61,663 nt of DNA from an uncultured Bacilli bacterium (GTDB lineage: Bacteria; Bacillota_I; Bacilli_A; RF39; UBA660), in assembly GCA_944332205.1 (NCBI GenBank), contig CALVJN010000006.1, positions 1 through 61,663 on the forward strand. Direction: 5' to 3'. Each line of letters opens with the position of its first letter. Within the stretch, counting starts at the first letter, position 1. The notes under the pieces are model-generated. The model saw only the letters and a list, made by a program, of their open reading frames with translations. It did not search any database and was not told where the DNA came from. Shown in pieces: positions 41,496-56,902 of the stretch. The translations under genes were made by a program, and so were the position numbers.

Positions 41496-43331
41496 ATGAA
41501 GAATAAAAAAGGTTTTACCTTAATAGAGCTATTAGCAGTAATAATAATATTAGGAATATTAATGATAATAGCAATACCAGCAGTAACAGAGTATATATCA
41601 TCATCAAGAAAGAGTGCTTATATAACAACAGCATCAAGATATATAGATGGAGTAAGGAATAAGATAAATGCTGCAGAAATACCAGTCTATGATAAAGAGA
41701 CAACATATTATATACCAGGAAGTTGTGTTTCAATGGAAAAAGGTGGAAAAAGTCCATATGGAGACTGGGAAGAGTATTATGTAGTAGTAACATATGATGG
41801 AACTAGTTATGACTATTATTGGACAAGTAGAGATGAAACAAACACAGGAATATATTTAACATATCAAGATTTATTAGATGTAGATAGAATAGAGAATAAT
41901 GTAACAAGTATATCTACAAATATTGGTGTTGGAGATAGAGAAAAGATATTAGTATTAAAAGATAGCTGTAGTATAAATGATGCAGAAGAATTAGTAGCAA
42001 CAAGTAGTATCCCAGAAAAAGGAACAAGTAATGGAAGTGAAACAGAAGAACCAGGAAATATAACATATAAAGAAGAAATATTAAATGGAACAGAACCAAA
42101 GTTAAGTGGAGCATTAATACCAATAACAATAGAAAATGATGGAACAGTAAAGAAAGCAGATACTAATACTAAGTGGTATAGTTATGAAGAGAAAAGATGG
42201 GCAAATGCCGTAATATTAAAAGATGAAAGTAAGAGTTATAATAATGGAGAAGTAATACCAGAAGAAGAAATAGAGAGTTATTTTGTATGGATACCAAAGT
42301 ATAGTTATAAGTTATGGGATTTAGGAAATTATACAGGTGATACAGCAGTAGATACAAGTAAAGTACATTCAATAGATATAAGATTTGGAACAACCAATAC
42401 AAGTGATAGTGTAGAAGGAGAATGTACAACACCTAAAGTATCAGGAGAAAGTGGAAACTGCGAAGTAGGAGATTATATGACTCATCCAGCATTCTTAGCC
42501 TTTAATACAACAGGATTATGGGTAGGAAAGTTTGAGACAGGTTATGATGGAGCAACAAGTGCATATGTAGCAGAAAAGGATACAACAGAAGTATCCAAAG
42601 CAATAGTAAAACCAAATGTTTACAGTTGGAGAAATATACAAGTAGCTAATGCCTTTACAGTAAGCTATAATTATAAAAGAGAGTTAGAATCTCATATGAT
42701 GAAGAATACGGAATGGGGAGCAGTAACTTATTTATCACATTCTATATATGGAATAAATGATGAAGTAAGATTAAATAATAATTCAAACTATTTAACAGGA
42801 TATGCAGCAACAACAGAAAACGGAAGTGGAAGTACAACAGAAGTAGCAATGTGGAACACTTCTACAGGATACTTAGCAAGTACAACAGGAAATATAACAG
42901 GAATATATGATATGTCAGGAGGAGCATGGGAATATGTAATGGGAGTAATGAAAGATGCAAATGGAAATTTAATGTCAGGCTATAATTCTTCCCAAAATTC
43001 AGGATTTAATGGAACATTATATGATGGAAGTAGTTATACAAATGGAATAGATTTTCCTGATAGTAAATATTATGATGTTTATAATTATAATTCTAATCAA
43101 TCTAATTATTCTCAAAGAATATTAGGAGATGCAACAGGAGAGATGGGACCATTTCAAGGGTATAGATCATCATGGTATAATGATACTTCATATTTGGTTT
43201 ACTCTAGCTACCCTTGGTTCTACCGTGGGGGCTACAATAACATCGGTTCTGGTGCTGGTGCGTTCTTTTTCAGCAGCAACTACGGGCATGCTCACCCCTG
43301 CATTTCTTTCCGTTTAGTTTTGGGTGTATAG
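41496..43331 (+). CDS. prepilin-like protein with FGE/C-type-lectin C-terminal domain, probable DGR target
   Basis: A 611-aa surface or secreted protein. It begins with a type IV prepilin-like leader KKGFTLIELLAVIIILGIL (cleavage expected after Gly8) and a helical SSRKSAYITTASRYIDG segment. Residues to about 190 are the cassette also found at 51831 and 61236. The region from about 330 has formylglycine-generating-enzyme/C-type-lectin features: GLWVGKFETGYDG, GIYDMSGGAWEYVMG and a final WFYRGGYNN...ISFRLVLG. In this fold the end of the domain displays a ligand-binding surface. The last 130 bases differ sharply in composition from the rest, as in a diversity-generating-retroelement variable region. 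CTAGGAGTG precedes the ATG. Confidence 0.85.
   Translation: MKNKKGFTLIELLAVIIILGILMIIAIPAVTEYISSSRKSAYITTASRYIDGVRNKINAAEIPVYDKETTYYIPGSCVSMEKGGKSPYGDWEEYYVVVTYDGTSYDYYWTSRDETNTGIYLTYQDLLDVDRIENNVTSISTNIGVGDREKILVLKDSCSINDAEELVATSSIPEKGTSNGSETEEPGNITYKEEILNGTEPKLSGALIPITIENDGTVKKADTNTKWYSYEEKRWANAVILKDESKSYNNGEVIPEEEIESYFVWIPKYSYKLWDLGNYTGDTAVDTSKVHSIDIRFGTTNTSDSVEGECTTPKVSGESGNCEVGDYMTHPAFLAFNTTGLWVGKFETGYDGATSAYVAEKDTTEVSKAIVKPNVYSWRNIQVANAFTVSYNYKRELESHMMKNTEWGAVTYLSHSIYGINDEVRLNNNSNYLTGYAATTENGSGSTTEVAMWNTSTGYLASTTGNITGIYDMSGGAWEYVMGVMKDANGNLMSGYNSSQNSGFNGTLYDGSSYTNGIDFPDSKYYDVYNYNSNQSNYSQRILGDATGEMGPFQGYRSSWYNDTSYLVYSSYPWFYRGGYNNIGSGAGAFFFSSNYGHAHPCISFRLVLGV
43195..43325 (+). other. candidate DGR variable region (VR) and IMH
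   Basis: Bases 43201-43320 are 60/120 G+C, against 35/120 for the preceding 120. In frame the codons are largely NNC (TAC, AGC, TTC, GGC, AAC, ATC, CAC, TGC), which are rare in this genome. They sit at the surface positions of a C-type-lectin fold, while scaffold residues (RGG, GSGAGAF, SFRLVLG) use other codons. That is what adenine-directed mutagenesis of AAC template codons gives. The invariant end (TCTTTCCGTTTAG) would be the IMH. The template repeat is not in the window. Confidence 0.75.
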
Positions 43332-43334
43332 TTT

Positions 43335-43349
43335 TTCCCAAAGTGGGAA
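43335..43349 (+). repeat. hairpin directly after the variable region
   Basis: TTCCCA-AAG-TGGGAA starts two bases after the stop codon of the DGR-like gene. Known DGR targets have a short hairpin/cruciform just downstream of the IMH that aids retrohoming. It is not followed by a T-run, so it is not an ordinary terminator; the real one lies at 43423. Confidence 0.65.
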
Positions 43350-43422
43350 CCCTAATTTTTGCGTTTTAGTAGGTGAATGAAGTATATTGATAGATAGATT
43401 TAATATAATGAAGTATTTTAAT

Positions 43423-43458
43423 AATGCTAATTGTATGTTTTTGCAATTAGCATTTTTA
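43423..43458 (+). terminator. terminator after the DGR-like gene
   Basis: AATGCTAATTG (43423-43433) and CAATTAGCATT (43444-43454), then T-run. Confidence 0.85.
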
Positions 43459-56686: not shown

Positions 56687-56734
56687 TATAATAAGTTTAT
56701 ATTTGTTTTAAGAAGTAGTAGTAAATTATATATT

Positions 56735-56902
56735 TTTAGAGAGTTAGTGGATGGTGAAAACTAATAATAAAAATTTATGAACTTGTCTTTTGAAATAACA
56801 AATCGTAATTCTTGCGTTAAAAGTTAAAGTTGCGTAGATTTTTCTACGAATTAAGGTGGTACCGCGAAAATATTCGTCCTTATGGGGAGGAATATTTTTT
56901 AT
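56735..56902 (+). promoter_or_regulatory. T-box leader, leucine-specific
   Basis: It contains the T-box sequence AAGGTGGTACCGCG (56853-56866), which pairs with the uncharged tRNA acceptor end. The terminator AATATTCGTCC...GGAGGAATATT with T-run is at 56869-56900. Stem I has the AG-rich bulge and GGTG segment near 56745-56756, and GAA-CTT-G gives the specifier CTT (56782-56784), a Leu codon. A promoter (TTGTTT, TATATA) lies near 56703-56732. Uncharged tRNA-Leu should switch on the following two genes, including leuS. Confidence 0.88.

What the first reader, a model, noticed from the sequence alone, without database searches (positions are those of the whole stretch)
43332..43350. Short hairpin right behind the VR
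TTCCCA-AAG-TGGGAA begins two bases after the stop. DGR targets such as that of Bordetella phage have a hairpin/cruciform just beyond the IMH that supports retrohoming. The separate true terminator at 43423 makes a terminator role unlikely.
Basis: partly seen in the sequence, partly recalled or inferred. Interest (0 to 1): 0.55.

Follow-up and report, generated by a model that had tools for sequence, protein, structure and literature searches.

The report
DNA hairpin marking hypermutation targets
Right behind a gene that this uncultured bacterium appears to hypermutate by reverse transcription lies a short DNA hairpin; hairpins of other sequence but similar shape and place sit behind most sister target genes and behind many targets in related bacteria, so it is probably a landing mark for the mutating machinery.

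Summary
The hairpin is real: TTCCCA-AAG-TGGGAA at 43335-43349, three bases after the stop. The gene is a genuine diversity-generating retroelement (DGR) target: another contig holds RT, Avd, a MutS-like protein and the template repeat (TR), and eight targets were found. Five of the seven other targets carry a longer hairpin at the same spot; two lack it. The TR is not followed by it. A pattern for the long form hits only those five places in the genome. In 38 related DGR loci, shuffle-significant hairpins follow 16 variable repeats, 5 TRs and 28 of 179 other ORF ends; stems are unrelated in sequence and mostly AT-rich. In 24 targets of 7 genomes, those lacking a hairpin at the stop have drifted further from the TR at non-adenine sites (medians 12.1% and 1.2%), which fits lost retrohoming, but the signal is weak among remote targets alone and cause is open. 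A separate terminator (43423-43454) is conserved. It works like the BPP-1 target hairpin, but stem composition and loop (not GRNA) differ. The window's copy is the shortest in its genome, and near-stop hairpins are common here, so the comparison, not the hairpin alone, carries the case.

The parts
41496..43331 (+). DGR target gene, 611 aa, prepilin-type N-terminus, variable C-terminus
   Evidence: N_methyl PF07963 E 2.5e-8, TIGR02532 over cut-off; C-terminal part only a weak, below-cut-off FGE-sulfatase match (E 0.0069; 5 of 11 family members at E<=1)
43194..43324 (+). variable repeat (VR), approximate limits; 3' part from about 43304 is the likely IMH
   Evidence: 14 of 31 template adenines changed, 5 of 89 other positions; limits read from that alignment; IMH assignment by analogy
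43335..43349 (+). hairpin TTCCCA-AAG-TGGGAA, the finding; divergent copy of the longer target hairpin
   Evidence: alignment with ten sister targets
43350..43422 (+). 3' flank conserved among targets (CCCTAATTTTTGCG...), role unknown
   Evidence: alignment of 11 targets of two genomes
43423..43454 (+). intrinsic terminator of the target gene, separate from the hairpin
   Evidence: 13 pairs and T tail; stem kept with paired changes in the aligned targets (by eye)

Best explanation
The hairpin is the target-site element of a multi-target diversity-generating retroelement. The cassette on contig C3 makes a template-repeat RNA that its RT, with Avd, copies into cDNA with random bases opposite adenines. 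The cDNA rewrites the variable repeat of any of about eight prepilin-type genes. The inverted repeat behind the VR can extrude as a hairpin or cruciform and, as in Bordetella phage BPP-1, makes that VR (and not the TR, which lacks it) a good recipient, either by being recognised or by holding the target strand open. Shown here: the cassette, the adenine-biased VR/TR relation, the hairpin at most targets and its absence behind this TR, and shape and place kept with other letters in many relatives. Inferred: that it acts in DNA and raises retrohoming, and that the short window copy still works.
For: RT, Avd, TR and adenine-biased VRs; long hairpin at 5 of 7 other targets and at 4 of 5 target matches of the sister genome G009, the fifth having an AT-rich version; the pattern hits only these 5 places in the genome. 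DNA folds of the long form -8.2 kcal/mol, z -4.53 (two tested). In 38 related loci a significant hairpin follows 16 VRs, 5 TRs, and 28 of 179 other ORF ends (Fisher p 0.0006 and 0.009), with stems unrelated in sequence. Targets with hairpin stay nearer the TR at non-A sites (p 0.001; within-genome permutation p 0.003). A stem of free sequence is required for efficient homing in BPP-1 (PMC3240598) and its deletion strongly lowers editing in E. coli (PMC12875486).
Against: 22 of 38 related VRs have no significant hairpin, and most rows of a sister RT clade lack one. The paired VR-TR score difference is not significant (Wilcoxon p 0.083, n 27; p 0.077, n 38). In this genome alone the drift test is not significant (p 0.14 and 0.11), and among remote targets only it is marginal (p 0.044 and 0.060). 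C23 (long hairpin) has 8 of 83 non-A changes and C31 16 of 83, while hairpin-less G190 C51 and G140 C13 have only 3 each. GRNA loop and GC-rich stem of BPP-1 are not met. Window copy only 6 bp. Common descent of the duplicated target flanks explains sharing within the genus without function.
Confidence: 0.75

Rival explanations
1. The hairpin is an mRNA 3'-end element (weak terminator, pause or stability stem-loop) of the target gene, unrelated to retrohoming.
For: It lies just behind the stop; the simple scan lists it as terminator-like; near-stop hairpins follow 10 of 42 other picked ORF ends in the window.
Against: A full terminator follows at 43423-43454 and is conserved in the aligned targets. 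The window hairpin is followed by CCCTAATTTT and the long form by CTTAACCCTG, not by a T run. Many related stems are AT-rich, and hairpin absence goes with drift from the TR, which an mRNA role would not predict.
Confidence: 0.12
2. The hairpin is a passenger: the target gene was copied with its 3' flank, and similar stems elsewhere are chance palindromes of AT-rich DNA.
For: All 11 aligned genus-level flanks are homologous over about 100 nt beyond the hairpin; 28 of 179 other ORF ends have equally significant hairpins; the window hairpin alone has z -1.76.
Against: The window copy lost the outer arm through a 7-nt gap but has both inner arms changed so that they pair. Excess behind VR over TR and over other ORF ends. 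Drift association over 7 genomes.
Confidence: 0.13
3. The element is a DGR hairpin in kind, but the window copy is decaying and this target is leaving the programme.
For: Shortest stem of the six hairpin-bearing targets; outer pairs lost; -4.3 against -8.2 kcal/mol for the long form; 5 of 89 non-A changes against 0, 1 and 2 in C3, C12 and C20b.
Against: The remaining stem is fully paired with three G-C pairs in a row; related local targets L065 and L069 have 5-bp stems; adenine footprint as rich as in the local target (14 and 13 of 31).
Confidence: 0.3

Closest known systems
Bordetella phage BPP-1 DGR target hairpin/cruciform (Guo et al. 2011, PMC3240598; abstract and passages seen)
   Same: Inverted repeat a few to some tens of nt behind VR, absent behind TR; stem sequence free, structure kept; DGR with Avd.
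   Different: BPP-1 and the phage set: 7-10 bp GC-rich stems and 4-nt GRNA loops. Here 6 bp with loop AAG in the window; 11 bp with TT (or 10 bp with CTTG) in sister targets; relatives mostly AT-rich with loops such as TTTA, GTAA, CTTG.
Archaeal DUSEL4 DGR hairpins (Paul et al. 2015, PMC4372165; passages seen)
   Same: Short inverted repeat tied to VR; loop shorter than four.
   Different: GRA trinucleotide loops, and the hairpin lies inside the target gene; here at or behind the stop.
Lachnospiraceae DGR loci fetched here (L105, L129, L132, L133, L136, L137)
   Same: Hairpin starting 10-12 nt from the stop codon of the target.
   Different: Classical GC-rich stems with GGAA or GAAA loops, in a separate RT clade (four of the six in the tree).

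Membership tests
Diversity-generating retroelement (system in this genome) | DGR-type reverse transcriptase | tested here: met
   RVT_1 57.9 bits, cut-off 29.6; PHROG 1423 reverse transcriptase E 3.3e-102; IGNYTSQ and YMDD in the translation (that these are DGR RT motifs is recalled)
Diversity-generating retroelement (system in this genome) | TR/VR pair with changes at template adenines | tested here: met
   local target C3: 13 of 31 A sites, 0 of 89 others; window: 14 of 31 and 5 of 89
Diversity-generating retroelement (system in this genome) | accessory protein Avd | tested here: met
   bAvd PF22296 64.5 bits, cut-off 40; NF033474 68.7 bits, below its cut-off of 80; PHROG 3206 Avd
BPP-1-type DGR target hairpin | inverted repeat 4-34 bp behind VR | tested here: met
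   about 10 nt from the VR end (approximate) to the stem at 43335
BPP-1-type DGR target hairpin | not present behind TR | tested here: met
   TR flank in L010 lacks it; it shares TATATAGTTTTT with the VR flank but not the 3' arm
BPP-1-type DGR target hairpin | 7-10 bp GC-rich stem | tested here: not met
   window 6 bp, 50% GC; sister 10 bp, 30%; mean of 18 typed stems 34% GC
BPP-1-type DGR target hairpin | 4-nt GRNA loop | tested here: not met
   AAG in the window, TT or CTTG in sister targets
BPP-1-type DGR target hairpin | needed for efficient retrohoming; cruciform forms in supercoiled DNA | not testable with these tools
   needs an experiment; only the indirect drift association
Intrinsic terminator | GC-rich stem directly followed by a T run | tested here: inconclusive
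   the loose scan lists it with tail CCCTAATTTT, a poor tail; the long form is followed by CTTAACCCTG

The most novel reading that the evidence does not exclude
In this bacterial family one cassette serves many targets, and the hairpin is the switch that decides which genes stay in the diversification programme: copies that keep a hairpin, of almost any sequence, keep being rewritten from the template; copies that lose it freeze and drift. The mark is read by shape, with neither a GC-rich stem nor a GRNA loop.
Probability: 0.33. Interest if true: 0.65.

Novelty: new variant of a known kind. Interest (0 to 1): 0.45.

Why it matters
How a DGR picks its recipient and spares its template is only partly understood, and the experiments I saw used one phage system. 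A chromosomal family with several targets per genome, hairpins whose letters turn over while shape and place stay, and natural hairpin-loss targets offers a ready comparison of retrohoming with and without the element, and suggests that the GC-rich GRNA rule is not general.

Tried and rejected
Significance of the hairpin alone: rejected as an argument; 11 of 43 picked ORF ends in the window have a comparable near-stop stem.

A first set of 24 loci, which I picked after seeing results, gave 18 of 24 VRs with a hairpin scoring 14 or more against 28 of 111 ORF ends. That set left out L062, L101, L102 and L103 (no good hairpin) and added L064, and its control filter was faulty. Rule-based selection (all non-duplicate loci L010 and L031-L104 with a qualifying TR/VR pair, 38) gives 21 of 38 against 54 of 179 (p 0.0046) and, by shuffle p<=0.05, 16 of 38 VRs, 5 of 38 TRs and 28 of 179 ORF ends; these replace the first counts. 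Over all DGR loci with an assignable target ORF (57 of 64), near-stop hairpins scoring 15 or more are 17 of 57 against 30 of 324, with some misassigned stops (L043, L048, L053).

Structure of the target's C-terminal part: the AlphaFold model is useless (mean pLDDT 30.7), so no fold search was made; a profile search of solved structures found nothing up to E 1.

Loop type on the RT tree: 17 changes for loop types, 8 for presence or absence over 39 rows; no shuffled comparison was printed, so nothing is claimed. Row L111 was missing.

Literature: searches for A56-type priming gave 0 papers; for Bacilli pilin targets one unrelated listing; PMC8144416 holds none of six terms asked; PMC10743442 uses 'hairpin' for protein. 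I found no description of these family hairpins; the library is open-licence only.

Dropped before counts: loci that repeat a place already held; pairs with fewer than 6 A changes, or with non-A changes more than half of the A changes. In the drift test: genome G379 (no match), a second identical G140 copy, and the G009 targets (no TR sought; no RT match at E<=1e-10 in this 87% complete genome). Presence/absence and non-A counts were entered by hand; imperfect C31 was tried both ways (permutation p 0.003 as present, 0.0002 as absent). Targets of G190, G118 and G140 were sought with the VR of G270, so more diverged ones may be missed.

Full report
What is there. The window (G000:C6) holds a gene, 41496-43331, with a type IV prepilin N-terminus and a variable 3' end. 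Behind its stop (43329-43331) come TTT and then TTCCCA-AAG-TGGGAA at 43335-43349.

The DGR. The genome has one RT match, on contig C3. Beside it are Avd, a stand-alone MutS domain I protein, a template repeat and a local target. MutS-like (MSL) accessory proteins of DGRs are known (PMC10053308, one passage). A search with the window's VR finds eight targets, the window's included: C6, C3, C12, C23, C20a, C20b, C9 and C31. Against the template the window VR is changed at 14 of 31 adenine sites and 5 of 89 others; the local C3 VR at 13 of 31 and 0 of 89. The premise of the finding is right.

The hairpin across targets. C12, C23 and C20b have AGTTTTTCCAC-TT-GTGGAAAAACT, C3 the same with one G-T, C31 a version with changes in both arms and the loop; the stem begins inside the stop codon. 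C20a and C9 have TAGTCGTAATA there and lack the hairpin. The window has a divergent form: a 7-nt gap removes the outer 3' arm, and both inner arms changed so that a 6-bp stem forms. In the sister genome G009, four of five target matches have the long hairpin and one an AT-rich version. In the whole genome the pattern TTTTTCNNNNTGTGNAAAA occurs five times, each time at a target; the reversed control pattern does not occur. The template repeat is not followed by it, though its flank shares TATATAGTTTTT with a VR flank (2 of 2000 Markov resamples as long), as if a 5' arm remained without its partner.

Relatives. RT relatives were fetched (best 80 of 251 loci; 61 of 386 family genomes with an RT match, loci of the best ones). 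TR-VR pairs were found by adenine-biased mismatch in 78 of 110 scanned loci, and 64 passed filters. In the first set of 27, a hairpin with shuffle p<=0.05 follows VR in 14 and TR in 2, though the paired score difference is not significant (Wilcoxon p 0.083). In the rule-based set of 38, it follows 16 VRs, 5 TRs and 28 of 179 ends of other long ORFs (VR against ORF ends p 0.0006, VR against TR p 0.009); by score 14 or more it is 21 of 38 VRs, 10 of 38 TRs and 54 of 179 ORF ends, and the paired difference is again not significant (p 0.077). 17 of 38 have a stem scoring 14 or more that starts within 10 nt of the end of VR homology. Stems share no evident sequence: TAATTTGC-GTAA-GCAAATTA, GAAACGCT-ATAA-AGCGTTTC, ATAGATTTCAAAC-GAGA-GTTTGAAATCTAT, GTAATTTAAAAT-TTTA-ATTTTAAATTAC. 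Same place and shape with other letters is the strongest sign of function; but 22 of 38 lack a significant one, among them five of six rows of a sister RT clade whose target lies on the strand opposite to the RT (L079, L081, L088, L098, L123; L097 has one).

Hairpin and drift. For 24 targets in 7 genomes I counted changes at non-adenine template sites, which retrohoming should keep resetting. Median drift is 1.2% with hairpin (n=14) and 12.1% without (n=10); one-sided rank test p 0.001, permutation within genomes p 0.003. All seven local targets have the hairpin and drive part of this: among the 17 remote targets p is 0.044 and 0.060, and in this genome alone 0.14 and 0.11. In G108 three targets with an intact TAGTCGC-TA-GCGACTA have 0, 1 and 6 of 70 non-A changes; the fourth, with its 3' arm decayed, has 10. 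Exceptions: G140 C13 and G190 C51 (no hairpin, 3 changes each), C31 (imperfect hairpin, 16 of 83) and C23 (long hairpin, 8 of 83). Loss of the hairpin may cause drift, or both may follow from disuse.

Mechanism. In BPP-1 the stem is needed for efficient homing, its sequence can vary, and loop sequence and size matter (PMC3240598, passages). In E. coli, deleting it severely but not fully lowers editing, editing is better in targets co-directional with replication, and the authors suggest that the stem-loop prolongs the open state (PMC12875486, passages). The window target is on the + strand in a stretch of positive GC skew (0.26-0.37 over 30001-60000), which would fit co-direction with replication (inference; coding bias also makes such skew). 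I read the hairpin as a recipient mark acting in DNA. A terminator role is unlikely because a full terminator, conserved in the aligned targets, follows at 43423-43454.

What differs from the known. The BPP-1 features of GC-rich stem and GRNA loop were tested and not met, while Lachnospiraceae loci from the same search do show them. So it works like the BPP-1 element without sharing all its sequence features: a new variant of a known kind.

Noticed in passing
L010, minus strand, about 45 nt behind the template repeat (contig C3), and many related loci: Behind the TR, not the VR, lies another hairpin with a tetraloop of the type TACG/TAAG/CAAG/CACG and a stem of changing sequence: 23 of 62 DGR loci, 4 of 61 behind VR, 5% of mononucleotide shuffles. 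In 21 chosen windows 95% of cells pair against at most 49% when slid, but the windows were chosen for pairing, so that count is circular. Perhaps a conserved part of the template RNA that RT-Avd binds.
   Followed up: partly
L010:2663-3046 minus: Stand-alone MutS domain I protein of 127 aa between TR and Avd (MutS_I 35.4 bits, cut-off 20.6); a known DGR accessory class (MSL, PMC10053308 passage).
   Followed up: partly
L053, L072, L077, L084, L086, behind the VR: A second, GC-rich hairpin whose loop, not tail, holds a CTTTTT-like run; perhaps the counterpart of the target terminator in this genome.
   Followed up: no
L079, L081, L088, L097, L098, L123: A sister RT clade in which VR and TR lie on the strand opposite to the RT, with another conserved-looking VR 3' flank.
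   Followed up: no
G009 (same genus): Five target-like matches but no RT match at E<=1e-10 in a genome 87% complete: missing contig or targets left without a cassette.
   Followed up: partly
window 56696-56884 plus: T-box leader (RF00230, 102.7 bits), ordinary.
   Followed up: no
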